Source: an uncultured Candidatus Saccharibacteria bacterium (GTDB taxonomy: Bacteria; Patescibacteriota; Saccharimonadia; Saccharimonadales; Saccharimonadaceae). Taken from it: a stretch of 52,169 nt of DNA. The position numbers and the translations under genes are program-made. Where the stretch lies: the NCBI GenBank assembly GCA_947306745.1, contig CAMZHH010000003.1, forward strand, positions 1-52,169. Reading direction: 5' to 3'. This document shows, piece by piece, positions 5,867-28,700 of this stretch (its first letter is position 1; every line of letters starts with the position of its first letter). A model generated the notes under the pieces. The model ran no database searches. It was not told the origin of the DNA and worked only from the letters and a program-made list of their open reading frames with translations.

Positions 5867-7741
5867 TTACTCCACGATTGCTTTAATACGACGAACACCA
5901 GCTGAGCTAGACTCTTCTTTTTTGATCTTGAAATGACCAATTACGCCAGTATGTTCAACGTGTGGACCGCCACAAACTTCGCGCGAGACTGGATTATCGA
6001 AATCGCCGATTGTATAGACAGTGAGTTTCTCTGGATATTTATCCCAGAACTGACCATGCGCCTTTAGAGTATCGCGCGCGTAGGCCTTATCGTATTCATC
6101 GTGAACCACCTTGAGGTCGGCCTGAATCCATTCGTTGACCTGGTCTTCGATTTGTTGCTTCTCTTCTGGAGTAAGCTTACGGTCGAGGTTGAAGTCGAAG
6201 CGGAGACGTTCGGCGGTGATATTTGAACCCTGCTGACCGATTTCTGGATCAATTAGCTTCTGCAAAGCCGCCAAAAGTAAGTGTGTAGCAGTGTGATATT
6301 TCGTGGTTTGTTCGCCATGGTCCTCGAGGCCGCCCTTAAACATACCCTTGCTAGCCGTCTTAGAACGATTGCGTTGCTCTTCGAGCGCAGCATCGAATTC
6401 TTGGCGCCAATTCTCGCTGAGTGGAATATCCTGGCGATAAGCTTCCTCGACAGAGAGCTCGAGTGGGAAGCCATAGGTATCCTGAAGCATAAAGAGTTCG
6501 TTGCCAGTAAGACCATCTTTCTGGAAGCGAGCGAGCTCTTTCATACCGCGACGAAGCGTCTTGCGGAAGGCTTGCTCTTCGTGACTGAGTACATCAAGTA
6601 CCTGCTCGCGAGTAGTCAAAATGCTATCTGGTAAATCTTTATAATTATCAGCAATCAATGGCAAAACTTCAGCGAGGAAATCTTGCTCGATGCCGAGGTT
6701 GAGCGCCTTCAAAATTGCACGACGGATCAAGCGGCGAAGCGCATAACCTTGTTGTTTATTAGATGGCTTTAAGCCCTGCGCAGACAAGAGATATGCGCCA
6801 CGCAAATGGTCAGCAATCACGCGCATTTCAGCGGTGTTAGATTCGTATTTTTTGCCGGAAAGAGAAACCAATTTATCTACGATTGGTTTAAGCAAGGAAA
6901 TTTGGAAGACGTCATAAGAGTCCATCGAGGCAGCGGTAATACGCTCGAGGCCGGCGCCGAAGTCGACGTTCTTGTGCTCGAGTTCTTCGAAGCTGCCATC
7001 TTCGAGGCGGCGATATTGCATAAAGACTTGGTTGCCGATTTCCATGAAACGGGCGCCATCGGAAGCTGGATGAGCCTTGCCATACTTCTCTTCGTCCTGG
7101 TGCTCTTCGCCAAAGTCATAGAAGACTTCGGAATCTGGACCGCATGGGTCGCCAATTGGCGTAGTTTCAATGCCGCCACCACGAGACCACCAGTTTTCTT
7201 TATCGTTATAGAAGAAGATGCGCTCATCACCCTTAATACCGCGCTTGTCGCCGTTCTCGGCGGTGTCAATTTCGGCAATATCAGCTTTAATGCCAACCTC
7301 GGCAAAGACTTGCTGCCAAATCTTAGCAGCCTCATCATCGCGTGGGATACCGTATTTTTCGCTGCCGATAAAACAGGTAACGTAGATTTTAGTCGGATCG
7401 AGGCCAACTTCTTTGGTCAGGAAGGTAAAGAAGTTGCGAATCTGCTCTTCTTTGAAGTAATCGCCAAGCGACCAGTTGCCAAGCATCTCAAAGACGGTAG
7501 TATGGCGCGGGTCGCCCACGTCGTCGATATCCTGCAAACGCAAACATGGTTGCGAGTCGGTAAGGCGCTGGCCCTCTTTGTGCGGTTGACCAAGCAAATA
7601 TGGCAATAACGGTTGCATACCGGAGCCAGTAAATAATGTCGTCGGATCATTTTCGAGCACGAGTGGTGCTGGCTCAATCACCACGTGGCCCTTCGACTTC
7701 ATAAAGTCGAGGTATTTTTGACGTACTTCACTTGCATTCAT
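5867..7741 (-). CDS. alaS: Alanyl-tRNA synthetase, short form without C-Ala domain
   Basis: Charges tRNA-Ala with alanine. The class II catalytic core includes FTGSGMQP (motif 2 region) and the GLERI stretch of motif 3. The editing domain carries the zinc-type residues HTATH and CGGPH. The protein is 624 residues and ends soon after the second zinc motif, so the C-terminal C-Ala domain of the roughly 875-residue bacterial enzyme is absent. I chose the ATG at 7741 (MNASEVRQ) instead of an in-frame ATG 111 nt upstream. The family normally begins near this motif, and a minus-strand TACAAT (7748-7753) ends exactly 6 nt before it, making the mRNA leaderless. The acetyltransferase gene follows in the operon. 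Confidence 0.95.
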   Translation of the reverse strand: MNASEVRQKYLDFMKSKGHVVIEPAPLVLENDPTTLFTGSGMQPLLPYLLGQPHKEGQRLTDSQPCLRLQDIDDVGDPRHTTVFEMLGNWSLGDYFKEEQIRNFFTFLTKEVGLDPTKIYVTCFIGSEKYGIPRDDEAAKIWQQVFAEVGIKADIAEIDTAENGDKRGIKGDERIFFYNDKENWWSRGGGIETTPIGDPCGPDSEVFYDFGEEHQDEEKYGKAHPASDGARFMEIGNQVFMQYRRLEDGSFEELEHKNVDFGAGLERITAASMDSYDVFQISLLKPIVDKLVSLSGKKYESNTAEMRVIADHLRGAYLLSAQGLKPSNKQQGYALRRLIRRAILKALNLGIEQDFLAEVLPLIADNYKDLPDSILTTREQVLDVLSHEEQAFRKTLRRGMKELARFQKDGLTGNELFMLQDTYGFPLELSVEEAYRQDIPLSENWRQEFDAALEEQRNRSKTASKGMFKGGLEDHGEQTTKYHTATHLLLAALQKLIDPEIGQQGSNITAERLRFDFNLDRKLTPEEKQQIEDQVNEWIQADLKVVHDEYDKAYARDTLKAHGQFWDKYPEKLTVYTIGDFDNPVSREVCGGPHVEHTGVIGHFKIKKEESSSAGVRRIKAIVE

Positions 7742-7747
7742 TGTTAT

Positions 7748-7753
7748 ATTGTA
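7748..7753 (-). promoter_or_regulatory. -10 hexamer TACAAT of alaS
   Basis: It lies 6 nt before the MNAS start, which supports that start and a leaderless mRNA. Confidence 0.5.
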
Positions 7754-7808
7754 CAATATTTTCGCCCCTGATGATAGCGTTAGAAGATTGCCAGTTTTCT
7801 CTTTATGC

Positions 7809-7837
7809 TTGACTTTTTTGTCGAAGTGTGCTATAAT
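7809..7837 (+). promoter_or_regulatory. Strong shared-type promoter of the secreted two-repeat protein
   Basis: TTGACT (7809-7814), 17 nt, then TATAAT (7832-7837) preceded by TGTGC. The start is expected near 7844, giving a leader of about 90 nt. Confidence 0.8.
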
Positions 7838-7843
7838 GATAAT

Positions 7844-7904
7844 TGTAGTCATTTTAGAGACTACACTACCTCATTGTTTCAGAGGGTAGCACGCAAAACC
7901 CTCT
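7844..7904 (+). promoter_or_regulatory. Structured 5' leader with alternative hairpins
   Basis: A perfect 7-bp hairpin (7844-7850 with 7859-7865) is followed by two competing ones. Segment 7882-7889 can pair upstream with CTACCTC at 7866-7872, or (as 7881-7887, AGAGGGT) downstream with ACCCTCT at 7898-7904. The Shine-Dalgarno site GGAAGGAG (7918-7925) follows. The pairing is directly visible; a regulatory role is inference. Confidence 0.5.
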
Positions 7905-8591: not shown

Positions 8592-8616
8592 GCCGCCCCT
8601 CCGGGGCGGCATTTTC
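8592..8616 (+). terminator. Rho-independent terminator
   Basis: The 8-bp stem GCCGCCCC/GGGGCGGC with a 3-nt loop is followed by ATTTTCT. It ends the transcript of the secreted protein and sits directly against the mnmA stop codon. Confidence 0.85.
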
Positions 8617-9638
8617 TAGGCTTCGATAATGCCGCCACCAAGACAGACGTCGCCGCGATAAAAGACGACCGACTGACCAGGCGTAAGCGACTTTTGTTCT
8701 TCAGTGAAGGTTAGCACGCCATCCTGATAATCCGCCTCTACGAGCGGTGCGCGGTGGCGAATGCGCGCCTGAATATGGCGCCCATCATCGCCGTGGCGCA
8801 AAATAACATCTTTGAGTTTAATAGTGTTCGTCCAAAGTTTGAGCGAATTAAGATTCTGTGAGACATAGACAATATTAGCGTCCATGTCTTTTTTGACGAC
8901 ATAATAAGGCAAGCCAGCTTTAAGGTTAAGCCCGTGGCGCTGACCAAGCGTATAGAAAATTGCGCCGTCATGCACGCCTATTTCTGCGCCAGTTTCGAGT
9001 TCGACAATTTTGCCCGGCTTAGTCTCGATAAATTCCGCCAAAAAGTCTTTCATGTTCGCTTCACCCACAAAGCAAACACCCATCGACTCAGCTTTATGCG
9101 CCACACTTAGGCCAATTTCGGCCGCTAAGGCTTTTACCTCGGGCTTGAGCATATCGCCAACTGGGAAAATTGTCTTTTCAATGACGTCTTCGGTGATGCG
9201 ATAAAGAAAATAAGTCTGATCTTTGTTCTCGTCTTTAGCTTTCAGCAACGCGCGACCGTTCGTCTTAGCATAGTGGCCAGTGGCAATCATGTCCGCCCCC
9301 TGCTCAAAGGCGGTATCGGCGAACAACTTAAACTTAATCTCCTGGTTGCACATAATGTCAGGGTTCGGTGTATTGCCCTTTTGATATTCGGCAAGCATAT
9401 AATCGACTACTTTCTGCTTATATTCCAGCTCAAAATCAAACACGCGAAAATCGATACCTAGTTTAACCGCCACACGTTTCGCATCGGCGAGATCTTCCGC
9501 CCATGGGCATTTCATGCCTGGGAGATTTTTGCTCCAGTTCTTCATGTAGACGCCGACAACTTCGTAGCCTTGTTGCTGCAAAAGATAAGCCGAGACGGCC
9601 GAATCAACGCCACCAGACATGCCTAAGAAAACTTTCAT
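8616..9638 (-). CDS. mnmA: tRNA-specific 2-thiouridylase
   Basis: MnmA places sulfur on U34 of tRNA Lys, Glu and Gln, using ATP and a persulfide relayed from a cysteine desulfurase. One is encoded in this window at 16667-17821. The N-terminus carries the PP-loop GMSGGVDS. The first catalytic cysteine is in PDIMCNQEIKF and the second in GVCFVGE, and the GHYAKT and LGQRHGL motifs are present. At 340 residues it is close to the usual length. The ATG at 9638 (MKVFLGMSGG) is chosen over one 12 nt upstream, because the upstream ATG overlaps the -10 hexamer TATGAT (9646-9651). Confidence 0.95.
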   Translation of the reverse strand: MKVFLGMSGGVDSAVSAYLLQQQGYEVVGVYMKNWSKNLPGMKCPWAEDLADAKRVAVKLGIDFRVFDFELEYKQKVVDYMLAEYQKGNTPNPDIMCNQEIKFKLFADTAFEQGADMIATGHYAKTNGRALLKAKDENKDQTYFLYRITEDVIEKTIFPVGDMLKPEVKALAAEIGLSVAHKAESMGVCFVGEANMKDFLAEFIETKPGKIVELETGAEIGVHDGAIFYTLGQRHGLNLKAGLPYYVVKKDMDANIVYVSQNLNSLKLWTNTIKLKDVILRHGDDGRHIQARIRHRAPLVEADYQDGVLTFTEEQKSLTPGQSVVFYRGDVCLGGGIIEA

Positions 9639-9645
9639 TATTAAT

Positions 9646-9651
9646 ATCATA
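9646..9651 (-). promoter_or_regulatory. Putative -10 hexamer TATGAT of mnmA
   Basis: It ends 7 nt before the MKVF start, fitting the leaderless pattern. It deviates from consensus by one base. Confidence 0.35.
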
Positions 9652-16666: not shown

Positions 16667-17821
16667 TTAATGAGCTAAACGACGCATTTCATTCTCCACG
16701 ACTTCGTGGAGAATTTTGCTGAACTCATCAATTTGCTCAGCGTTTGTCAATTTACCCATCGATAGACGTAGTGAACCAGCAATCGCTTTATCGTCTAGAC
16801 CAATTGCAACTAGCGTGGGCGATTTAATGCCTTTACTAGCAGAACAAGCAGCGCCAGTTGAAACATAGACATTCCGATCTTCAAGCGCGAAAATCAAGCG
16901 TTCCGCATCGAGTCCAGGTAAGGAAATTGGCAAGAAGCTCGGCAATTGTACCTTGTCTTTACCAAGGAACATAATATTCGGCAAATCTTCAAGCCGTTTG
17001 CGCAATTCACGCTTCAAATCACTCAGACGTTTGCGCTCGGAATTAATATGTTTCTCCGCTTCCGTAATCGCCGTTGCGAAGGCCATCGTGGCTGGAACAT
17101 TTTCCGTGCCACTACGCAGTCCCATTTCCTGACCGCCACCAACAGTTAATGGCTGAAGACGAACATTATGGCCAACATATAGCGCACCAATACCCTTCGG
17201 GCCGTAAATTTTGGCGGCATTCAAAGTTAACAAATCAACACCGAGACGAGCAACTTTTACTTCCATCAGGCCAAGCCCCTGCGAAGCATCGCAGTGGAAA
17301 TATAATGGCGTCTTCTCGCCAGCAAATGCACGACGTTCGCGTTCGGCGTTAATAATGTGCGATAAATCCGAAATTGGCTGAATTGTACCAAGCTCAGAGC
17401 AGACTAAGCAAACCGAAACAAATTGCGTTTTTGGCGACAACTTCGCTTCAAAATCCGCCAGGTCAACGCGACCATTTTCATCAACTTTGATTGTTTGATA
17501 GTTCCCCGCGCGCTTCGCATTCTCAAGTACCGACGCATGCTCAACGGCCGAAATCAAAACCTCCGCATCGGAACCGCTAGGAATTAAAGAAAAGGCGAGA
17601 TTAATCGATTCGGTTGCGCCAGAGGTCATCACGAGATCGGCGCCCTTCGCGCCGATTACGTGCGCGATTTGATCCTTAGCTTCTTCGTAGCGATGACGCA
17701 CATCTACGGCCGGCAAATAAGCTGCCGAAGGATTAAAAAAGAAATCACTAAAATACGGCTCCATTGCATTGCGCGCTTTATCGGAAAGCGGCGTGGCCGC
17801 GGCATGGTCTAAATAAATCAT
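16667..17821 (-). CDS. Cysteine desulfurase (NifS/IscS family)
   Basis: A 384-residue pyridoxal-phosphate enzyme that removes sulfur from cysteine as a persulfide. The start YLDHAAATP, the HCDASQ motif and the PLP-binding lysine in NAAKIYGPKG are typical. The sulfur-carrying cysteine is in STGAACSASKG, on the short loop of the NifS-like class. In this window its likely acceptor is MnmA for tRNA thiolation. No iron-sulfur scaffold gene is visible nearby. A minus-strand TATAAT (17828-17833) ends 6 nt before the ATG, so the mRNA should be leaderless. Confidence 0.95.
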   Translation of the reverse strand: MIYLDHAAATPLSDKARNAMEPYFSDFFFNPSAAYLPAVDVRHRYEEAKDQIAHVIGAKGADLVMTSGATESINLAFSLIPSGSDAEVLISAVEHASVLENAKRAGNYQTIKVDENGRVDLADFEAKLSPKTQFVSVCLVCSELGTIQPISDLSHIINAERERRAFAGEKTPLYFHCDASQGLGLMEVKVARLGVDLLTLNAAKIYGPKGIGALYVGHNVRLQPLTVGGGQEMGLRSGTENVPATMAFATAITEAEKHINSERKRLSDLKRELRKRLEDLPNIMFLGKDKVQLPSFLPISLPGLDAERLIFALEDRNVYVSTGAACSASKGIKSPTLVAIGLDDKAIAGSLRLSMGKLTNAEQIDEFSKILHEVVENEMRRLAH

Positions 17822-19085: not shown

Positions 19086-21806
19086 TTATTTAGCTTCTTG
19101 AGCGTTGGCCTTGATTGATGGCGGAATCATCACGTCGCCAGCTTCATTATATTTCGACAGAACCATCGAACAGGTAAATTTATCAATGCCGGAGACTAAT
19201 CCACTAAAGTCATAGTCTAGTTTGCTAATGCGGCCATAAGAATCGATATAAACATCGACTTCCACGTCGCCGTTTAGAACTTTATAGTCTGCATCTTCTG
19301 AAGAATTATTAGCGGTCGACATTAAATCTGCAAGCTCGGCGGCTGTCATCTTTAGCTTATAATGACCGTCACCGACTTTCTTTGCTTCGTCAGACTTCAT
19401 CATACGCTTTACGACAAAGTCTATATCGAGTGTATGGCTGGCAGTTTTAGTCTTAGTCCAGGTCGGCATTTCTTCTCCGCCACCCAACAGACTAACAATA
19501 TCGCCAAGACCGCCGCCAAGACCAGAAATTGGGTTCGAGACATAATCGATTCCATTGTAGAAATCCGAATACGTAATCATCGAAATTTCCATATTCATGA
19601 CGGTTGTCATATTAGTCTGGAGATATTCACGCTGATGACGCTCATCGACTACGCCCTTACCGACCGCATGAACGTTAAAGCCGGACATTTCCATATCCAT
19701 CGTAAGATCGACGGCGTAGTTGTTATATTTGTGATTAAAAGTCAGAGTGCCAGGCGCATCGGCTAATTCAAACTTTAGGTGAAAGGACGACTTATTCAAT
19801 AAATCGGCATTCGTAACGACGAGATAGATTTCGTCAAAATCTGAATAGTCTGCACTATTCTTTACTAGCTTACCAACTGCAGTATCTTCAATTGACCATT
19901 TGTCGCCCTTCTTTTTAATAATAAGCGCGGATATTTTATCTTTGCCAGAAAATTCGAGTTTCCAATCTTTGCCAAGCGTAAAGTACATTGTGGCGCCATC
20001 CATGATTTCATAATCTAAATCAAGACTATAATCGCCATCATTTTCGAATGTAACCGTTCCGCGATCTTGCTTAAGTGAAGGATTATCGTAGTCACCAGAA
20101 ATTGCCCGATAGGCGGCATCATTAATGACCTTCTGCATATCCGAAGCGCTAGTATGTTTTTGAATAAAGTCATACGGATCGGATTGTTTGTGTGCCTGCA
20201 CGAGTGTAGCAAAGCCATTATTAACTATTTTTTGATATGAATAGAAATATGGATACTGACCGTAGCCATGATCGCCAGAGTCGTTCGTAATATGACGCAA
20301 GCCATCATGTGCCCGTGCGCCATAGCGCCACGACCAGTTACCTAGCAGTTCGCCTTTTTTATTAGTCACTAAAGCGCTAGCCAGGTTTGCTAATGCTTCT
20401 GCGTAGTCGTACTGATTGTCTGGGCAGTAGCCGTAACGTTTCTTGTTTTCCGGAGAACAGATGATTTTTTGATAATGATGGAATAACTCATGGTTAATAG
20501 TCTGTTCGCCAGACACGCCGCCATCATCTTTTTCGTAGACCAAGTTATTAACTACGATATGCGGCCACGTGATTGATTGATTGAATTGGCCAAAATCGTT
20601 AATGAGCTTATGGAACGTAGTAGAGGCGGCGCACCCAGAGTCGCTACTGGAATCACAAGTCATCGAATAATAGCTTGCGAGCGTAGATTTACTCTTAGTG
20701 TCCATCACGTAAACATTCATGGCACCCAAAAGATATGCCGTATCGATATTATTTGCCCTAAGGGTCTTGTTGACCTTTCTCGCATCGGAGGTGGTGTCTC
20801 CTTCTTCCGTGTCTATCGGATAGAATTCGTACGGACTGCCGGTTAGTTCGCTATATTTAGAGATATTTTTCTCCAAATTTGCAGCAAGATTTTTCGCTTG
20901 AGCGTCAGTGATTGCATCATCACCTTCCTTGGTGTACCAAATCAGGAAGTGACCATTATCTGAAAGTATGACTTTATCAAGACGGTGAGCATAATTCTCC
21001 TTCTTGTCTGCCAATACTATACCGGTAGCCGACACTGGGTCGTCTTCATCTGTCCATAATGCGACATCATTCAAGAAATAATGATTAGCAAAGTTTTCGA
21101 TGGAAGTCTTGGAAATTTCCGATTCGTATTTTTCGTAAAATTCCAACAGCTCATCAACGTTATTAATTGGCGCTACCGCGGCCTCGTCTGGAGCGTATTT
21201 TTCATCTAGCTTACTGGAGTCATATTCAGAATAAGTAAGTTGTTGGAAGTATTCGTCTGCCGTAATTTGGCCAGCCTCAAAATCCATGTTGAGTTTTGCG
21301 ACCGTCGTAAAGGCTTCTGGTATTGGCTCTTTTTTGTCGTGCTCGGCAGCCTTAGCTTCCCCTTTATTAAAGAAGATAAAGAATACGGCAGCGCCAGTGG
21401 CGGCGACTAATAAAATGATAATCAGAATGATGAGCCATTTTTTACTCTTTTTCTTTTTGGGAGTAGGAGTTTCAGCTGGAAGAGCTTGTGCGACTGGCAC
21501 TTCTACGGTCGGAGTAGCGTCTTGCGTTGGAGCAGGTTCCGATTCTGGTGCTTGTTCCGGTGTTGGCTCCGGTTCTGGCGTCGACTCAACTACTGGCTCG
21601 GGCTCTGATTCTGGTGTCGTGATAGACTCCAACTCAGACTCCGCGGCGGCTTGCTCAAAAATATTTGCTTCTTGCGGCACTTCTGGCTCTTTGCCCCGCT
21701 CCGCAGCGGCTTGCTCAAAAATGTTGGCCTCATGCGGCTCATTGGCCTTATTGACTGATTCGCCAAAAATATTCTTTTCTGGCGCGTCGCCATTTGAATC
21801 TTCCAT
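19086..21806 (-). CDS. Membrane-anchored surface protein with HExxH metalloprotease motif
   Basis: A 906-residue protein. The cytosolic N-terminus (1-120) contains two copies of EANIFEQAAAE and a variant, then a Glu/Pro-rich stretch, then KKKKSKK and a membrane helix (about 124-146). The large remainder should face outside. HELFH at 439-443 is a zinc-binding HExxH, and Glu470 in DYAEALAN is 27 residues further on, the arrangement of gluzincin peptidases. Four cysteines near 384-392 and 450-461 could form disulfides. The C-terminal third is beta-rich and lipoprotein-like. The ATG has a GGGAG site and TAAAAT upstream. I know no named family for the whole; a host- or envelope-directed protease is inference. 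Confidence 0.75.
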   Translation of the reverse strand: MEDSNGDAPEKNIFGESVNKANEPHEANIFEQAAAERGKEPEVPQEANIFEQAAAESELESITTPESEPEPVVESTPEPEPTPEQAPESEPAPTQDATPTVEVPVAQALPAETPTPKKKKSKKWLIILIIILLVAATGAAVFFIFFNKGEAKAAEHDKKEPIPEAFTTVAKLNMDFEAGQITADEYFQQLTYSEYDSSKLDEKYAPDEAAVAPINNVDELLEFYEKYESEISKTSIENFANHYFLNDVALWTDEDDPVSATGIVLADKKENYAHRLDKVILSDNGHFLIWYTKEGDDAITDAQAKNLAANLEKNISKYSELTGSPYEFYPIDTEEGDTTSDARKVNKTLRANNIDTAYLLGAMNVYVMDTKSKSTLASYYSMTCDSSSDSGCAASTTFHKLINDFGQFNQSITWPHIVVNNLVYEKDDGGVSGEQTINHELFHHYQKIICSPENKKRYGYCPDNQYDYAEALANLASALVTNKKGELLGNWSWRYGARAHDGLRHITNDSGDHGYGQYPYFYSYQKIVNNGFATLVQAHKQSDPYDFIQKHTSASDMQKVINDAAYRAISGDYDNPSLKQDRGTVTFENDGDYSLDLDYEIMDGATMYFTLGKDWKLEFSGKDKISALIIKKKGDKWSIEDTAVGKLVKNSADYSDFDEIYLVVTNADLLNKSSFHLKFELADAPGTLTFNHKYNNYAVDLTMDMEMSGFNVHAVGKGVVDERHQREYLQTNMTTVMNMEISMITYSDFYNGIDYVSNPISGLGGGLGDIVSLLGGGEEMPTWTKTKTASHTLDIDFVVKRMMKSDEAKKVGDGHYKLKMTAAELADLMSTANNSSEDADYKVLNGDVEVDVYIDSYGRISKLDYDFSGLVSGIDKFTCSMVLSKYNEAGDVMIPPSIKANAQEAK

Positions 21807-21845: not shown

Positions 21846-21878
21846 CAAAAAACTACCGCCTTTTCCGGACGGTAGTTT
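21846..21878 (-). terminator. Rho-independent terminator
   Basis: The stem ACTACCG/CGGTAGT with an inner CC/GG pairing is followed on the minus strand by a T run. It ends the tatD operon just after the 117-residue gene. Confidence 0.75.
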
Positions 21879-22230
21879 ATTTGTTGTAAATACGAGTTTT
21901 AACCAATTCGAGATAAGCTTTGGTTGCTGCGGTGAAATGTTCAAGTTCCTCGCCGGTAACCTTATTATAGCCACCATCGCCAACCTTCTTAAAGACGCCA
22001 TATTCGCGCACTTCATAGCGAATCGTTAGGCCATTTTCGTACCAAATCCAAACATTCTTTTTCAAACAGAAGAACTCACGCGAACCGCCAGCCGGAATAT
22101 ATCCAAAAAGCGTACGGCCGAGTGCGGATTCGGCATTAATTAAGTTCTTCTCGACAGCTCTACGGCGATCTTTATAGTTTGGCTGCGGAACTTGGCCTAA
22201 TAGATGTTGTTTAAGATTGAGTTTCGACAT
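21877..22230 (-). CDS. Hypothetical protein, last gene of the tatD operon
   Basis: A 117-residue basic soluble protein I do not recognise. The middle has an aromatic strand pattern (REFFCLKKNVWIWYENGLTIRYEVREYGVFK) flanked by helices, suggesting a small alpha/beta domain. There is no signal peptide. A GAGG site lies upstream of the ATG. Its first 34 bp overlap the end of the preceding 80-residue gene in another frame, which implies translational coupling. A direct terminator follows. Confidence 0.7.
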   Translation of the reverse strand: MSKLNLKQHLLGQVPQPNYKDRRRAVEKNLINAESALGRTLFGYIPAGGSREFFCLKKNVWIWYENGLTIRYEVREYGVFKKVGDGGYNKVTGEELEHFTAATKAYLELVKTRIYNK

Positions 22231-22439
22231 GCGATTACCTCGTCGGAGATGGCACTCAATTCATCGAAGATAGCGCGATCTTGGATGGACTCGTTCACGG
22301 CAGGAAAAGCTTTGGCGATAGTGATCGGCGTTTCTGGCGTAATCGGATTAGCATCGAGCGCAACCTGTTGCGCGTCCATGACAGCACCCGAAGTCGGAAT
22401 CTGATAGACTGTATTTTCGTAGTCTTCCATTATTTCCAT
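22197..22439 (-). CDS. Small acidic hypothetical protein of the tatD operon
   Basis: An 80-residue acidic protein without a recognisable domain. It has a disordered Pro/Thr-rich first half and a helical second half (VNESIQDRAIFDELSAISDEV). It is supported as a gene by a strong GGGAGG site 5-6 nt before the ATG and by tight placement 15 nt after tatD. Its pairing with the following 117-residue gene, which it overlaps by 34 bp, suggests that the two act together. Function unknown. Confidence 0.65.
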   Translation of the reverse strand: MEIMEDYENTVYQIPTSGAVMDAQQVALDANPITPETPITIAKAFPAVNESIQDRAIFDELSAISDEVIACRNSILNNIY

Positions 22440-22454
22440 GATGTCCTCCCCTTT

Positions 22455-23207
22455 TTAGATTTTGAAGATTTTTTCAGCGTTCTCAGTAGTGATTTTAGCC
22501 ACCACCTCTAAATTCTGCTGATAATAATCCGCTGCCCATTCGGCTATATTCCTTATATAACCTGGCTTATTCATTATACCACGAAATGGTTTTGGTGTCA
22601 AGAATGGAGCATCAGTTTCAAATACAATTCGCTCGAGTGGCGGATGCGCAATGTCGGCGAAGGTTGCCAGACCGTTTACGCCGAAATAAAAACCTTCTTC
22701 AAGTCCTTGCTTCATATTCTTTTTCGAATCAGAAAATGAATGCAAAACCGAGGTAGGAATATGGAAATTATGGTAAATCGGCCAAAAATCCTCGAAAGCA
22801 TCGCGAATATGAAAACTGACTGGAAGCTGACGATCTTGAGCGATTTGAAGCATATTTTCGAGCAAATGACGCTGAAAATCCTTATTATAGCCCTCGAAAT
22901 GGTAATCTAAGCCAATTTCGCCGATTGCCACGAGTCTTTTATCGTCTAGAACCTTTTTGGCCCGCTCAAGGTCTGCTGCGAGCTTAGTTTTATCGCCATC
23001 ATAATCGTTTGGATGATAGCCGAAAGTCCACCAAGCTTCGGCGTGCTGATTCGCAAAATCACAGGCCGCCTCCGAATCGAGCGGGTCCGTGCCAATCACG
23101 ATACATTTATCGACCCCGTTTCCGTGCATATGTGCCAAAACCTCATCAGTCTTAGATAGGTCAAAAAACTGTTTATCATGCAAATGACAGTGCGAATCAA
23201 TGAGCAT
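22455..23207 (-). CDS. tatD: TatD-family metal-dependent DNase
   Basis: A 250-residue TIM-barrel hydrolase. Metal ligands are visible as HCHLH at residues 6-10, the Glu of IGEIGLDYH, further histidines in FHIRDA and VLHSFSD, and Asp in ETDAPFLTP. Family members have 3'-5' DNase or exonuclease activity linked to DNA repair and turnover. Only 2 nt separate its start from the stop of the DUF4868-like gene upstream (TAA TT ATG), so the two are translationally coupled. Confidence 0.93.
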   Translation of the reverse strand: MLIDSHCHLHDKQFFDLSKTDEVLAHMHGNGVDKCIVIGTDPLDSEAACDFANQHAEAWWTFGYHPNDYDGDKTKLAADLERAKKVLDDKRLVAIGEIGLDYHFEGYNKDFQRHLLENMLQIAQDRQLPVSFHIRDAFEDFWPIYHNFHIPTSVLHSFSDSKKNMKQGLEEGFYFGVNGLATFADIAHPPLERIVFETDAPFLTPKPFRGIMNKPGYIRNIAEWAADYYQQNLEVVAKITTENAEKIFKI

Positions 23208-23209
23208 AA

Positions 23210-24217
23210 TTATCCTTCAAGGCCGCGCGGCGGTTCACCTTCCGGCTCATCAAGTAGCTTCTTGCTCTTGATTTCATAACGGCGACCATTAACTGGAGAA
23301 ACAAAGTAATCTTCGCTGAGGAGATTAACGAACATGCCAAGATCTTTTTCGTCCATGATGATAATTTTGCCCTGATCGTCAGTCATGAGCTCGAGTTGCA
23401 TTTGGTCGGCATAATCAAGCAGTTCGTCCTGCTTCATCTCGCCAACTTCGATACTCTGAAGCTTCTTGATAAGTGGCTTCTTGTCCTCAAGGAGTGCATT
23501 CAAGGTGAGACCTTCCGGGAAGCTGAGGCTATAAGCCTCTTCGAGCTCTTTAGCCTTTTGCTCAGAAATAACCTGAGATTTGTAATCATACTGGAAGAGT
23601 TTTTCAAACTTGGATTGATTAAAGATAACGATTTGGCCATCGACGATGGCGGTTTCGTTGCCTTCTGGCACCTTAATCGCAACATCGGCCGTAAGTGGCT
23701 CGAAGCTTTCGCCATTCAATTCCCAACCGAGCTTGCCCTTCAAGGCAGAGCTAGCGGCAAGATTCTTGGCGATATAGAAAGTCTCTTGACCATTGTCGCC
23801 AGGATAGGTAAACTTTGCCACGATACCCTTGATGCGCTTAAATTCGTATTCGTCATCAGTAAAGAAAGCAATGTCTTTGTATTCATTCTCGATGAGGTGG
23901 ATTAAGGTTTCAGCACGACCAACTTTCTCGAGCTCGATGCGATAGATGACCTTATCTTCACCATCAGAAAGCTCGTATTCACGACATTCGAGACCTTTGT
24001 CGGCTTCTTTAATGATATACTCGACAGCTTCGAGCATAAAGGTGTTCTTGATTGCCTGCATTAAAGCATCACTATAGCGCACCTTGTATGGGGTGTAGTT
24101 TTTATTGAATAGAAATAGCTCAACCGAGACGTTGTTTTTAACTTCATCAACGTTGTTAGCCCACTGAAAAACGTCAAATTCAGGTTTTCCGGTCTCTGGG
24201 GCGGTATTTTCTTCCAT
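23210..24217 (-). CDS. KwaB-like DUF4868 protein
   Basis: A 335-residue soluble protein. The pattern matches DUF4868, the family of KwaB from the Kiwa anti-phage system. It has a beta-rich N-terminal half, then an IFNQSKFEKLFQYD segment, a helical region with PLIKKLQSI, and a terminal block with GKIIIMDEKDLGMFVNLLSEDYFVSP then NGRRYEIKSKK. Kiwa normally pairs KwaB with the four-helix membrane protein KwaA. No such gene is adjacent. Here it leads an operon with tatD and two small genes. The ATG has a GGAGGAGA site and a TATAAT at 24243-24248. The assignment is from remembered family pattern; the role could be defence or something older. Confidence 0.6.
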   Translation of the reverse strand: MEENTAPETGKPEFDVFQWANNVDEVKNNVSVELFLFNKNYTPYKVRYSDALMQAIKNTFMLEAVEYIIKEADKGLECREYELSDGEDKVIYRIELEKVGRAETLIHLIENEYKDIAFFTDDEYEFKRIKGIVAKFTYPGDNGQETFYIAKNLAASSALKGKLGWELNGESFEPLTADVAIKVPEGNETAIVDGQIVIFNQSKFEKLFQYDYKSQVISEQKAKELEEAYSLSFPEGLTLNALLEDKKPLIKKLQSIEVGEMKQDELLDYADQMQLELMTDDQGKIIIMDEKDLGMFVNLLSEDYFVSPVNGRRYEIKSKKLLDEPEGEPPRGLEG

Positions 24218-24253: not shown

Positions 24254-25495
24254 CTATTCCGCTAGCGCCGCATCGAGTTGCGGATCTTCTTCTTTATTAA
24301 TTTGGTCAAAGGTGCGCTCAACTTCTTTATCTGGAGTAATACCCTCTTTGTTAATATTCACACCCTTTGGCGTATACCACTTAGCGATCGTAACGCGAAG
24401 CACTTCGCCGCCAGACAAAGTTTCAAGCGTCTGAACACTACCTTTACCGTAAGTCTTCTCACCAATCAAAGTAGCCCTATCGTAATCTTTCAAAGCACCA
24501 GCTACGATCTCGGAGGCGGAGGCAGTTGAACCGTTTACTAATACAACGGTCTTAATATTTGCAAGCAAAGCTTTATCGCGGTCGGCATAATACTTTTGGT
24601 TATAGAAACCGCTCGAAGATTTCTGCTCCATAATAATATCGCCGCTAATCCAGAGTGAGGCAACTTCCTTGGCGGAGCTGACATAACCACCACCGTTGCC
24701 GCGGAGGTCTAGAATGACTTTCTTGGAGCCTCTGTTTACGATTTCTTGCGCCTTTTCGCGTGCGAGCTCGCCAGTATTTTCATCGAAGCGCGTAATCGTA
24801 AGGATAGCAGTGTCGCCCTTATATTCGGTATACACACTGACGTTATTGATTGTCTCGCGCGTAAGGGTAAATTCTTTTTCTTCATTATTGCGTACGACAG
24901 TTAATACGACTGTCGAGCCAGCTTGACCGCGTAGCTTCTTTGCGACTTCTTCAACGCTTAGGCCGGAAATATCTTCACCATCGGCCTTGTAGATAATATC
25001 ACCAGCAAGAATTCCGGCACGACGAGCAGGGTTGTCTGGCGTAGTGCGTAGAACTTTCACTAAACCATCGCGCTGGCCAATCTCAACGCCAATGCCGGCG
25101 CCAACATCACCGTTCAAATCTTTATTAAACTCTTCAGCTTCAGAGGCGGTCATATAATAGGTGTACGGATCGCCAGCCGCATTTACCATGCCACGCTTAG
25201 CTTCCTGGATGGCTTTTTCTGGCGAAATTGAACCATCATATTTGCTAGTTAACTGGTTATATAAGTCCGTCAAAGAACTGAAATCTACTGTCGTGGGACG
25301 TTTGCCACCGAGATATGGGCCAAAAACATTTAATATGGTATTTGAGTTAAGACCAATCAATAGACCGAATGCCAACGTGATAGCACTAACAATAATGGTC
25401 GTAGTAAGATTTACTTTTTTCTCTGACGCTGGACTCTTGTAATATAGGTCACGCGTCTCATTTTTGAATTTATTTTCTTCGCGTTGCTTAGTCAT
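24254..25495 (-). CDS. ctpA: Carboxy-terminal processing serine protease (S41, CtpA)
   Basis: A 413-residue exported protease. It has a cytosolic basic N-terminus, a membrane anchor or signal (about 28-52), a PDZ domain (GVEIGQRDGLVKVLRTTPDNPARR region, about 135-215) and the S41 catalytic domain. The catalytic Ser lies in NGSTASASEIVAGAL and the Lys in GEKTYGKGSVQ. CtpA proteases process or degrade envelope proteins, often peptidoglycan hydrolases and their activators. It lies just downstream of a PcsB-like hydrolase and ftsEX. A minus-strand TAAAAT (25502-25507) ends 6 nt before the ATG, so it can be expressed independently and leaderless. Confidence 0.93.
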   Translation of the reverse strand: MTKQREENKFKNETRDLYYKSPASEKKVNLTTTIIVSAITLAFGLLIGLNSNTILNVFGPYLGGKRPTTVDFSSLTDLYNQLTSKYDGSISPEKAIQEAKRGMVNAAGDPYTYYMTASEAEEFNKDLNGDVGAGIGVEIGQRDGLVKVLRTTPDNPARRAGILAGDIIYKADGEDISGLSVEEVAKKLRGQAGSTVVLTVVRNNEEKEFTLTRETINNVSVYTEYKGDTAILTITRFDENTGELAREKAQEIVNRGSKKVILDLRGNGGGYVSSAKEVASLWISGDIIMEQKSSSGFYNQKYYADRDKALLANIKTVVLVNGSTASASEIVAGALKDYDRATLIGEKTYGKGSVQTLETLSGGEVLRVTIAKWYTPKGVNINKEGITPDKEVERTFDQINKEEDPQLDAALAE

Positions 25496-25544: not shown

Positions 25545-26702
25545 TTATCCACCGAAATAGATGTAATAGTCAAACATGCTTTTATTGACAGTCATAACAG
25601 AGAATTCACCGCGCGTCCAGTTATACTGAGAAACTTTCACCGTAACGCCATCGGTCCATTCTACCCATGCGGCGTGGCCATAAGTACCACTCATGCGAAT
25701 TGCGACTGCGCCATATTTTGGCACCGTACTGACAGGATATTTAGCAGCGCGCGCATTGGCCGGCCACTGCTTAGCGTTACCGCGGCCACCCCAACGGAGC
25801 GTAATGCCGTAGTTTTGTTCGACTTTCCAAGCCGCGTAGCTCACGCACTCACAAACATACATACCCCAGCGATCAACGAAGGAATCTATACCGCTTGGGC
25901 AATACTTCGAATATGGATAGCCACCCTTGTTTGGGTCACCAGAGGTAATCTGTGCATTCAGCAATTTAGCAGCCTCTTGGTTGACGCGATACTGTTCGTT
26001 TAATAAGGCTTTCTTTTGCGCATCAACGGCATTCTTACGCGAGACATAATCGGCTTGACTGCTGCGAGTCTGCGCAAGTAGCTCAGCTTGCTGCTTCTCA
26101 GTGGCAGCCAATTCAGCCTTCTGCTCTTTTAGGTCCTCAAGAATCATCTCAGCGTTCTTTTTCTTAACTTCGAGTTCTTTCTTGAGATTCTTATTCTCTT
26201 CAACGATGGCGGCTAACGTATCGGAAACGCTAGACAAACGAACTTCCTCATCGACAAAAGTAGAGAAATTTTCCGACGAAGCTAAGCGCTCAATGGTCGA
26301 AACACTATCATTGTAATAATATTGCGCAATGACATAGCCAATCGTATCGGAGTTTTCGTCAATACGCTTCTGGACGGCATCGATATCCTGAAGAATCTGC
26401 TCATATTCAGCTTGTTCGAGCTCAATTTCAGCCTTCAGTTTGGCCTGCTGGTTTTGCAAAACGGCAATTTGATTCTCGATAGTAGCAGCCTGAGCAGCCA
26501 ATTCGGCGGCCTTAGCATTGAGATTGTTTACTTGACCCTGAAGCTCATTAATCTTATTACCCAATTCGCGGCTCTGAGCATTCAATTCATCGAGCTTCTT
26601 CTGCTCGGCGGCAGTCAAAGCGGAGGCCGGAAGACTTAGACAGGTAGAAAAAAGAATAACACAGGCGAGAGCGATAATACTAATTGGACGCCATAGTTTC
26701 AT
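25545..26702 (-). CDS. PcsB-like coiled-coil peptidoglycan hydrolase with CHAP domain
   Basis: A 385-residue secreted protein. It has a signal peptide (1-28, ending PASA), a long coiled coil (about 30-245, heptad-rich Leu/Ala/Glu/Gln) and a C-terminal CHAP domain. The catalytic Cys is in VCECVSYAAW and the His in GHAAWVEW. This is the architecture of PcsB, whose coiled coil is held by FtsX so that FtsE ATP hydrolysis switches on wall cleavage at the septum. The ftsX gene starts 61 bp upstream and ftsE before it, which supports that role. Endopeptidase or amidase specificity cannot be read from the sequence. Confidence 0.9.
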   Translation of the reverse strand: MKLWRPISIIALACVILFSTCLSLPASALTAAEQKKLDELNAQSRELGNKINELQGQVNNLNAKAAELAAQAATIENQIAVLQNQQAKLKAEIELEQAEYEQILQDIDAVQKRIDENSDTIGYVIAQYYYNDSVSTIERLASSENFSTFVDEEVRLSSVSDTLAAIVEENKNLKKELEVKKKNAEMILEDLKEQKAELAATEKQQAELLAQTRSSQADYVSRKNAVDAQKKALLNEQYRVNQEAAKLLNAQITSGDPNKGGYPYSKYCPSGIDSFVDRWGMYVCECVSYAAWKVEQNYGITLRWGGRGNAKQWPANARAAKYPVSTVPKYGAVAIRMSGTYGHAAWVEWTDGVTVKVSQYNWTRGEFSVMTVNKSMFDYYIYFGG

Positions 26703-26763: not shown

Positions 26764-27807
26764 TTAGTTTTTTGCGTTGAGGTATTTGCGCGCGGCAAGT
26801 AATGATGAAATAATACCAATCAACATGCCAACTATCAAGAGTGCGCCAACGGCGAAGTACCAGTAATGTTGCATAAAGAAGATGGCTTCGTCTAGGACAG
26901 AACCGATACTATTGTGAAGCGCAAATGCGGCAACATAGACAATAGCTCCAGCAACCGCCGCAGCAGCAACGCCGTAAAGTGCTGCCTCGACAATGAATGG
27001 ACCAATAATGAACCAACGGCTTGCACCAACTAGGCGCATCATGTAGATTTCTTCCTTGCGGTTAAAGATCGCCATGCGAATCGTATTGAAGACTACGAGA
27101 ATCGCGATTAAGGCAAAGATGCCAGCGGCAGCAAGACCGATGATTTCGATGCGGTTCATGATGCTCGCAATGCGATCAATCGTCTCGCGGTGACTAGACG
27201 AATAGCTCGGCGGACGCGCATCAAGCATATTCACCATCACACTGCTGTGGTTGACAAAATCTTCAAGCTCACCGGTTTCGTTTAAATTCTTTAGCTTAAC
27301 GTTAATCGTCCACGGAATTTTATTTGGTGCTTCATATAAGCTCTCGATGTAGGCTTCATCCGTAATATGACTTTCTTCGATTAATTTCTTAATGGAAGCG
27401 TTATTAGCGTCTTCTGGCGAAGTAGCCTTTACTTCCACGACAGAATCGAGATTCTGCATAGCCTCAGTAATCTTGCGAACCTGCTCGGCACTGGCGGTCT
27501 GCTTGATGTAGACTGACATGTCCACCTGCGACTCTACCGCCTTAATAGCCGAGCTCATTGCGCTCGTAGCAATAATCGTGGCGGATAGAACAATCAAAGT
27601 TACTGCCATAATAGCGATAGCCGCCATACTAAGCCAGGCATTGCGCACAAAGCTCTTGGTGCCATACTTCATCACACGAGCGGAAGTGCGCAAACGATGC
27701 TTACGCGTCTTAGTAATGCGATTTAAGCGTTCTTTACTGACGCGAGCGGTCTCTTTTAGCTCGGCCTTCTGCTCTTTCGTAATCTTTGGTTTCTTCTTAC
27801 TTGACAT
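26764..27807 (-). CDS. ftsX: Cell division ABC transporter permease FtsX
   Basis: A 347-residue protein with a basic cytosolic N-terminus, a first membrane helix (about 58-85), an extracellular domain (about 90-220) and three C-terminal helices in the FtsX topology. The conserved cytosolic NRKEEIYMMRLVGASRWFI segment contacts the ATPase. FtsX with FtsE transmits the division signal to a periplasmic or extracellular hydrolase, here the CHAP protein next in line. Its start lies 29 bp from the ftsE stop. A near-palindromic AT-rich block at 27824-27833 could provide its own -10. Confidence 0.93.
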   Translation of the reverse strand: MSSKKKPKITKEQKAELKETARVSKERLNRITKTRKHRLRTSARVMKYGTKSFVRNAWLSMAAIAIMAVTLIVLSATIIATSAMSSAIKAVESQVDMSVYIKQTASAEQVRKITEAMQNLDSVVEVKATSPEDANNASIKKLIEESHITDEAYIESLYEAPNKIPWTINVKLKNLNETGELEDFVNHSSVMVNMLDARPPSYSSSHRETIDRIASIMNRIEIIGLAAAGIFALIAILVVFNTIRMAIFNRKEEIYMMRLVGASRWFIIGPFIVEAALYGVAAAAVAGAIVYVAAFALHNSIGSVLDEAIFFMQHYWYFAVGALLIVGMLIGIISSLLAARKYLNAKN

Positions 27808-27836: not shown

Positions 27837-28700
27837 TTAGTTAATAAAACGACGTTTATGCACGCGCTTTGGCTGAGGAGTGGCCGCTGGCGCACTTTTT
27901 TGTACGGGTTTCACTTCTGGCTGAGAGGTAGTAGCACGACGAATCTGTTCGGCAGTCGGTGCAGTACGAATCCTTGCCGCAAGTGGACGTTTTACGATCT
28001 TTGTATGCGAAGCATCGAGATCATAATGACCGTCATTCTTCTGATCGCCAATCACTTTACCATCGCGAATCGTAATCACGCGCTTCTTGAGCTGGTTTAC
28101 AATCTTTTCATCATGCGTAGTAACCAAGATTGTAGTGCCGAAATTATTAATTTCTTCAAGCAAACTCACGATACCCCACGAAGTCTCTGGGTCGAGGTTA
28201 CCAGTAGGCTCATCGGCGATTAGAATCTTTGGCTGGCGCGCCATCGAACGCGCAATCGCCACACGCTGACGCTCACCGCCAGAAAGCTCGGACGGGAATT
28301 TGTGACCTTTGTCGGCGAGGCCGACTAATTCAAGAACCTTCGGCACTGTACGGCGAATTTCAGCATTTGATACGCCTACAATTTCGAGCGCAAAGGCGAC
28401 GTTTTCGTAAACTGTACGGTTTGGCAATAATTTAAAATCCTGGAAGACGACACCAAGACGACGACGAAGATGCGGAATATGGCGACGCTTCATATAATCA
28501 TAATCAATGCCGCCCACCATAATTTTGCCAGAAGTCGGCTTCTCTTCGCGGGTAAGCATCTTAATCAAAGTAGATTTGCCGGCGCCAGATTTACCGACCA
28601 AGAAAACGAATTCCTTTGGCTGGATATGCAAAGAAACATTGTCGAGAGCCGGCAACTTATCGCCAGGATAATATTTGGACACATTATCAAGCAATATCAT
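27837..28700 (-). CDS. ftsE: Cell division ABC transporter ATPase FtsE with C-terminal extension
   Basis: A 287-residue ABC ATPase. It has Walker A GKSGAGKST near 36-44, a Q-loop in VVFQDFKLLP, signature LSGGERQRVAIARS, Walker B ILIADEPTGNLD and the H-loop VTTHD. The canonical enzyme is about 225 residues. The extra 60 residues are basic and Pro/Ala-rich (ending KRVHKRRFIN) and look disordered, a possible partner- or nucleic-acid-binding tail. The gene leads the ftsE-ftsX-hydrolase cluster. A minus-strand TATGCT (28707-28712) ends 6 nt before the ATG, a weaker leaderless match. Confidence 0.95.
   Translation of the reverse strand: MILLDNVSKYYPGDKLPALDNVSLHIQPKEFVFLVGKSGAGKSTLIKMLTREEKPTSGKIMVGGIDYDYMKRRHIPHLRRRLGVVFQDFKLLPNRTVYENVAFALEIVGVSNAEIRRTVPKVLELVGLADKGHKFPSELSGGERQRVAIARSMARQPKILIADEPTGNLDPETSWGIVSLLEEINNFGTTILVTTHDEKIVNQLKKRVITIRDGKVIGDQKNDGHYDLDASHTKIVKRPLAARIRTAPTAEQIRRATTSQPEVKPVQKSAPAATPQPKRVHKRRFIN

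What the first reader, a model, noticed from the sequence alone, without database searches (positions are those of the whole stretch)
22197..24217. Orphan KwaB-like gene coupled to tatD and two small unknown genes
The first gene matches the pattern of DUF4868/KwaB from Kiwa phage defence but lacks the membrane partner KwaA. It is coupled (2-nt gap) to a TatD nuclease and then to two small overlapping genes. This may be an unrecognised defence or DNA-turnover unit.
Basis: inference. Interest (0 to 1): 0.6.

Follow-up and report, generated by a model that had tools for sequence, protein, structure and literature searches.

The report
Core KwaB-family gene in Saccharibacteria
A protein known only as the DNA-binding arm of the Kiwa phage-defence system is kept here without its partner as one of the most conserved single-copy genes of a family of tiny parasitic bacteria (Saccharibacteria), which points to an everyday DNA-related role rather than a private defence system.

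Summary
The minus-strand gene at 23210-24217 is a true KwaB-family protein: Pfam KwaB 35.7 bits against a cut-off of 26.3; its predicted fold matches solved Kiwa KwaB at Z 15-17. There is no KwaA in the genome. A TatD gene starts 2 nt downstream, followed by two small genes overlapping by 34 nt.

The defence reading does not hold. The gene is present in 177 of 188 near-complete genomes of its family (one copy in nearly all), all 18 of its genus, and is the most conserved protein of the 52-kb window (86.5% identity to a congener, above AlaRS, RNase J and NusA; dN/dS 0.016). In other genera it sits in core synteny with RNase HI, RecO and a PIF1/HRDC helicase. KwaA occurs in 3 of 151 family genomes; those three carry KwaA-KwaB pairs beside restriction-modification genes, as well as the core copy. 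Five phage contigs encode relatives among DNA-metabolism genes.

The KwaB-TatD coupling is a late join within this genus; elsewhere TatD and the 117-aa gene form a separate metG-tatD-iscS-mnmA-alaS locus. Best reading: a core, KwaA-independent, non-catalytic DNA-binding protein of replication or repair, paralogous to Kiwa KwaB. The fold and conservation are shown; DNA binding and function are inferred.

The parts
23210..24217 (-). KwaB-family core protein (335 aa), here called cKwaB
   Evidence: PF16162 35.7 bits, PADLOC KwaB E 3e-11; fold matches PDB 9nyu/9mtn/9mrx Z 15-17; hhalign vs Kiwa KwaB 95.8%, E 7e-9; 177/188 family genomes
22455..23207 (-). TatD-family metal-dependent DNase, 2 nt downstream of KwaB
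   Evidence: PF01026 204.8 bits; canonical motifs DSHCHLH, GEIGLDY, SFHIRD, VLHSFS, FETDAP present in the translation
22197..22439 (-). 80-aa fast-evolving small protein (O80); variable middle, conserved C-terminus ELSA(V/I)S(D/E)EV..CR
   Evidence: recurs between TatD and O117 in 32 genus loci at 24-79% identity; no family match
21877..22230 (-). 117-aa conserved protein of unknown function (O117), overlaps O80 by 34 nt
   Evidence: 35 invariant columns in genus alignment; found in 98 of 147 class genomes independently of KwaB; no Pfam/NCBIfam family
24254..25495 (-). S41/CtpA-like protease with PDZ domain, 36 nt upstream of KwaB
   Evidence: PF03572 163.9 bits, PDZ_2; same order in the genus
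25545..26702 (-). PcsB-like coiled-coil + CHAP peptidoglycan hydrolase
   Evidence: PF05257 46.8 bits, CC_PcsB weak
26764..27807 (-). FtsX-like permease of the same gene run
   Evidence: ORF and position after the ABC ATPase; family name inferred from sequence and order, conserved in 26 genus loci
27837..28700 (-). FtsE-like ABC ATPase, first gene of the run
   Evidence: ORF with ABC motifs; conserved order

Best explanation
The gene encodes a core, KwaA-independent member of the KwaB family, kept by vertical descent in Saccharimonadales as a cytoplasmic, non-catalytic DNA-binding protein (probably a homodimer, as in Kiwa) that works on the cell's own DNA at replication or repair structures. 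It is a slowly evolving paralogue of the Kiwa effector, not a Kiwa system. In this genus the gene moved from an old neighbourhood of RNase HI, RecO and a PIF1/HRDC helicase to the junction between the FtsEX-PcsB-CtpA genes and the TatD-O80-O117 genes, so it is now probably co-transcribed with envelope and DNase genes; TatD is a housekeeping nuclease and not its dedicated partner. Shown: family membership, fold, absence of KwaA, conservation, synteny, join in this genus. Inferred: DNA binding (from Kiwa KwaB), dimerisation, replication/repair role (from neighbours and phage context).
For: Homology over the full length; fold. Near-universal: 177 of 188 family genomes at least 95% complete, 18/18 in the genus, 195/295 in the class, none outside the class in the phylum sample. 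Strongest purifying selection: 81-94% identity in the genus, against medians of 41-80% for the neighbours, dN/dS 0.016, rank 1 of 28 window proteins against congener G034. Core synteny elsewhere: PIF1/HRDC helicase within four ORFs downstream on the same strand in 26 of 33 representatives, RNase HI, RecO and HisS nearby. Genuine KwaA in only 3/151 family genomes, with KwaB next to R-M genes, and in addition to the core copy. Tree: core copies on short branches, Kiwa KwaB on branches of 0.7-5.3 changes per column. Phage contigs carry relatives beside RecE-like exonuclease, Sak4, replication initiator and terminase. Kiwa KwaB binds DNA without cleaving it (PMC12904381).
Against: No experiment. 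DNA binding is carried over from a 15%-identical homologue; the protein is acidic (pI 4.5), although Kiwa KwaB from Emticicia (4.9) and YejK (4.9) are too. It is not strictly essential: 11 of 188 family genomes and about a third of class genomes lack it. Its helicase neighbour is dispensable: the window genome and g27 keep KwaB but have no PIF1/HRDC match, and several genomes keep the helicase without KwaB, so no fixed functional pair is shown. A constitutive anti-phage role cannot be excluded.
Confidence: 0.55

Rival explanations
1. It is a constitutive, KwaA-less immune protein: cytoplasmic KwaB that binds incoming phage or transformed DNA, fixed in the lineage because these reduced genomes have few other defences.
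For: KwaB fold and full-length homology; Kiwa KwaB blocks phage DNA replication (PMC12904381); phages of unknown host carry homologues that could be decoys.
Against: No KwaA sensor; lowest dN/dS of the segment and top conservation rank, unlike the long branches of true Kiwa KwaB; core synteny, no defence island; real Kiwa coexists with it in three genomes.
Confidence: 0.15
2. It is an envelope/cell-division factor: in this genus it is a cytoplasmic adaptor of the FtsEX-PcsB-CtpA peptidoglycan remodelling operon.
For: Gene order FtsE-FtsX-CHAP-S41-KwaB found in about 25 genus loci with short gaps; FtsEX-CHAP-S41 also lies two called ORFs from KwaB in genus g29; Kiwa KwaB is a membrane-complex subunit.
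Against: Outside these genera KwaB is not next to FtsEX; the basal genus member G002 has KwaB in the RNase HI-CYTH-KwaB-MraW context instead; no membrane segment or signal peptide apparent in the translation.
Confidence: 0.12
3. KwaB and TatD form a dedicated DNA-processing pair (binding protein plus nuclease).
For: 2-nt gap with a ribosome-binding site inside the KwaB 3' end; the two are neighbours in 34 genus loci, median gap 1 nt.
Against: In the other genera sampled TatD sits with metG/O117/iscS and KwaB elsewhere; KwaB-bearing genomes outside the genus show no such coupling.
Confidence: 0.1
4. It is an orphan remnant of a Kiwa system that lost KwaA recently.
For: No KwaA; KwaB homology.
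Against: One conserved copy in 94% of the family, in shared synteny and under strong purifying selection; core and Kiwa copies are distinct in the tree.
Confidence: 0.02

Closest known systems
Kiwa anti-phage system, KwaB (PF16162/DUF4868; PDB 9mtn, 9nyu, 9mrx, 9o0i)
   Same: Full-length homology and the same fold; likely dimeric, non-catalytic DNA binding.
   Different: No KwaA, no defence island, core single-copy gene under very strong purifying selection; far below the NCBIfam KwaB equivalog cut-off (31.9 against 200 bits).
Kiwa pairs inside Saccharimonadaceae-type genomes (G149, G175, G588)
   Same: The same family of bacteria; the KwaB of G149 is about 22-29% identical to core copies.
   Different: Adjacent to KwaA and to restriction-modification or Vsr genes; sporadic; long branches; present in addition to the core copy.
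Phage KwaB-like proteins (IMG/VR contigs L265-L269; phrog_11123, unknown function)
   Same: 30-36% identical to the window protein, no KwaA recognised beside them, shared D-x-F-x-W-A-N and M-x-D-x-x-G-x-I-I motifs.
   Different: Encoded in phage replication/recombination regions.
YejK/NdpA nucleoid-associated protein (PDB 9be2)
   Same: Best non-KwaB structural match of the N-terminal half (Z 4.9, 129 residues); similar length; core chromosomal DNA-binding protein.
   Different: Z too low to call homology; no sequence-profile similarity (hhalign probability 0.1%).
metG-tatD housekeeping locus of bacteria
   Same: TatD with O117 follows metG and precedes iscS-like, mnmA and alaS in most Saccharimonadales sampled.
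   Different: In this genus it is preceded by FtsEX-CHAP-S41-KwaB.

Membership tests
KwaB protein family (PF16162 / DUF4868) | HMM score above the gathering cut-off | tested here: met
   35.7 bits against 26.3
KwaB protein family (PF16162 / DUF4868) | KwaB fold over the whole chain | tested here: met
   Foldseek E 2.5e-12, prob 1.0; VIA Z 15-17, 280-284 residues aligned; high rmsd (13.7) shows that domain orientation differs or is mispredicted; hhalign 95.8% over 300 columns
Kiwa defence system | Adjacent membrane partner KwaA | tested here: not met
   NF041622 absent from the window genome; neighbours are S41 protease and TatD
Kiwa defence system | KwaB at equivalog level (NF041623) | tested here: not met
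   31.9 bits against a cut-off of 200
Kiwa defence system | Sporadic occurrence in defence islands | tested here: not met
   177/188 family genomes; PADLOC scan of 47 window ORFs gave only scattered single hits, mostly apparent housekeeping paralogues such as the IscS-type desulfurase
Kiwa defence system | Protection against phage | not testable with these tools
   needs a phage challenge
Qat defence system (QatD = TatD-like) | QatD at equivalog level with QatA-C | tested here: not met
   QatD 57.7 bits against 230; TatD scores far higher with TIGR00010 and PF01026; no Qat partner among window hits
TatD family DNase | PF01026 and metal-binding motifs | tested here: met
   204.8 bits; motifs read in the translation; TIGR00010 202.4, just under its cut-off of 206
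YejK/NA37 nucleoid-associated proteins | Sequence-profile similarity to YejK | tested here: not met
   hhalign probability 0.1%
YejK/NA37 nucleoid-associated proteins | Shared fold | tested here: inconclusive
   Z 4.9, 129 residues, first non-KwaB hit but under the level where common arrangements are excluded

The most novel reading that the evidence does not exclude
The KwaB fold is first a housekeeping and phage DNA-metabolism module (a new nucleoid- or fork-associated protein of Saccharibacteria), and Kiwa arose by coupling such a protein to a membrane sensor; the core copies are the living counterpart of the pre-defence state.
Probability: 0.25. Interest if true: 0.75.

Novelty: new variant of a known kind. 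Interest (0 to 1): 0.55.

Why it matters
KwaB is known only as a defence effector, and annotation pipelines label its homologues as such. A core, KwaA-less, slowly evolving KwaB in a family of reduced epibionts warns against calling defence from one domain. It offers a genetically tractable case (Southlakia epibionticum, PMC10633639) for asking what the KwaB fold does on host DNA and whether a defence system was built from a housekeeping DNA-binding protein.

Tried and rejected
Orphan Kiwa remnant: rejected by universality and selection. Dedicated KwaB-TatD unit: rejected, the join is limited to this genus. Qat-like system: rejected by scores. Fixed KwaB-PIF1 pair: considered because of synteny, weakened because each is retained without the other. 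YejK homology: structural lead only, no sequence support. First AlphaFold model (alignment of close relatives only) had pLDDT 52 and was replaced by one with phage homologues, pLDDT 81. tblastn with the window protein found nothing in plasmids or in GenBank phages, with the L268 phage protein nothing in phages, and with the G149 Kiwa KwaB nothing in plasmids. Further viral scans gave no contigs beyond the first five. The Kiwa structure paper is not in the library, so KwaA-interface and DNA-contact residues could not be checked.

Full report
What is there. The gap between KwaB and TatD is 2 nt; the two small genes overlap by 34 nt, an overlap that is 34 nt in 28 and 31 nt in 4 of 32 genus loci. 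Upstream, with gaps of 29-61 nt, lie FtsE, FtsX, a PcsB-like CHAP protein and an S41/PDZ protease. The whole order FtsE-FtsX-CHAP-S41-KwaB-TatD-O80-O117 recurs in most of the genus, so the unit is probably an eight-gene run and not a four-gene operon. The genome is a 935-kb Saccharibacteria assembly: the closest named hits of the KwaB protein are Candidatus Saccharibacteria MAGs, many from ruminant gut.

Is it KwaB? Yes as a protein family. Pfam KwaB scores 35.7 bits against a cut-off of 26.3, five PADLOC KwaB models match, the best across residues 24-324, and all 27 aligned relatives match PADLOC KwaB. A model with pLDDT 81 finds only Kiwa KwaB structures at significant E-values (9mtn, 9mrx, 9nyu; E 2.5e-12 to 2.5e-11; Z 15-17 over about 280 residues). 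The high rmsd shows that the arrangement of the parts differs or is not well predicted. A profile-profile comparison with KwaB of three KwaA-KwaB loci on plasmids gives 95.8%, E 7e-9 over 300 columns. It is not at equivalog level: NCBIfam KwaB 31.9 bits against 200.

Is it Kiwa? No. KwaA is absent from the genome. In the family, KwaA reaches E 0.001 in 3 of 151 genomes. In each, KwaA overlaps a KwaB-like gene: G149 has it beside a 5mC-methyltransferase-like and a Vsr-like gene, G175 beside restriction-enzyme-like genes, G588 near a methyltransferase-like and a Vsr-like gene (these neighbour names rest on reading the translations, not on an HMM search). The same three genomes also carry the core copy. 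That contrast inside one family is the clearest evidence that the window gene is a different thing.

Core-gene evidence. With a 27-row profile, 177 of 188 family genomes at least 95% complete have the gene, nearly always once, including 18 of 18 in the genus. In the class sample it is 195 of 295; in the phylum sample nothing outside the class matches. Across the genus KwaB is 81-94% identical to the window copy (median 89), while FtsE has median 80, S41 68, O117 66, TatD 65, FtsX 62, CHAP 53 and O80 41. dN/dS to the closest relative is 0.016, the lowest of the segment. Against congener G034 it ranks first of 28 window proteins (86.5%), ahead of alanyl-tRNA synthetase (82.7), RNase J (81.8) and NusA (81.4). 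Several comparisons have saturated dS, so the ratio is rough; the ranking by identity does not depend on it. In a tree, core copies have short branches while Kiwa copies have terminal branches of 0.7 to 5.3 changes per column; placement of those long branches is unsure.

Neighbourhood and history. In 33 representatives of other genera and families KwaB is not next to TatD. A PIF1-type helicase with an HRDC domain follows within four called ORFs on the same strand in 26 of 33; RNase HI, RecO, HisS-like, SAM synthetase, CYTH, MraZ and MraW recur nearby. TatD with O117 forms a second conserved locus: metG, tatD, a small ORF, O117, an aminotransferase class V (IscS-like) gene, DUF218, mnmA, alaS. 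The window still shows this second locus downstream (IscS-like 16667-17821, MnmA 8616-9650, AlaRS 5867-7852). The basal genus member G002 keeps KwaB in an RNase HI-CYTH-KwaB-MraW setting. So KwaB moved to the join of the FtsEX and TatD loci within this genus. The helicase is not an obligate partner: the window genome and genus g27 have KwaB without it, and several genomes have the helicase without KwaB.

Phage relatives. Five IMG/VR contigs encode proteins 30-36% identical to the window protein. Between them they carry terminase, RecE-like exonuclease, Sak4-like annealing protein, replication initiator and endolysin genes; no KwaA was recognised beside them, but this was not searched with a KwaA model. 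Their hosts are unknown. PHROG 11123, of unknown function, is a phage KwaB family.

Mechanism. Kiwa KwaB forms dimers that bind DNA without cleaving it and block replication and late transcription (PMC12904381, summarising the Kiwa structure paper). I infer that the core protein keeps the DNA-binding part and lost, or never had, the KwaA link. Eight of 35 invariant positions across core and phage proteins are Lys/Arg and none is Glu, against 40 and 44 of 335 overall, compatible with a nucleic-acid surface. The acidic pI is shared by an authentic Kiwa KwaB and by YejK. A structural echo of the nucleoid protein YejK (Z 4.9) has no sequence support and is only a lead. Which DNA structure is bound, and in which process, is not shown.

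Verdict. Observation confirmed; defence reading not supported; a core DNA-related role is the best reading at moderate confidence. In the papers searched I found no description of this gene, but the library is partial.

Noticed in passing
window 19086-21806 (-): 906-aa protein with a repeated EANIFEQAAAE N-terminal segment, one membrane segment and an HELFHH (HExxH) motif, a putative surface metalloprotease; found next to O117 only in the window genome and its closest relative G010.
   Followed up: partly
window 21877-22230 (-); one search hits: O117 is an undescribed 117-aa family with invariant W-x-W and R-Y-E-x-R motifs, in 98 of 147 class genomes, normally after tatD.
   Followed up: partly
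window 22197-22230: The overlap of O80 and O117 is fixed in length (34 or 31 nt) although O80 itself evolves very fast (24-79% identity); suggests translational coupling.
   Followed up: partly
L311:6483-7983, L312:5832-7287, L313:3626-5031: Genuine but divergent Kiwa (KwaA-KwaB) pairs in three Saccharibacteria beside methyltransferase, Vsr or restriction genes; all under the NCBIfam KwaA cut-off.
   Followed up: yes
L265-L269 (IMG/VR contigs): Phage-encoded KwaB-like proteins in DNA-metabolism regions; possible replication accessory or decoy; host unknown.
   Followed up: partly
G185/G262 (L255, L257) upstream of PIF1: In two KwaB-lacking genomes a 538-547-aa unannotated protein (no Pfam match) occupies the slot between RNase HI and the helicase; possible replacement.
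   Followed up: no
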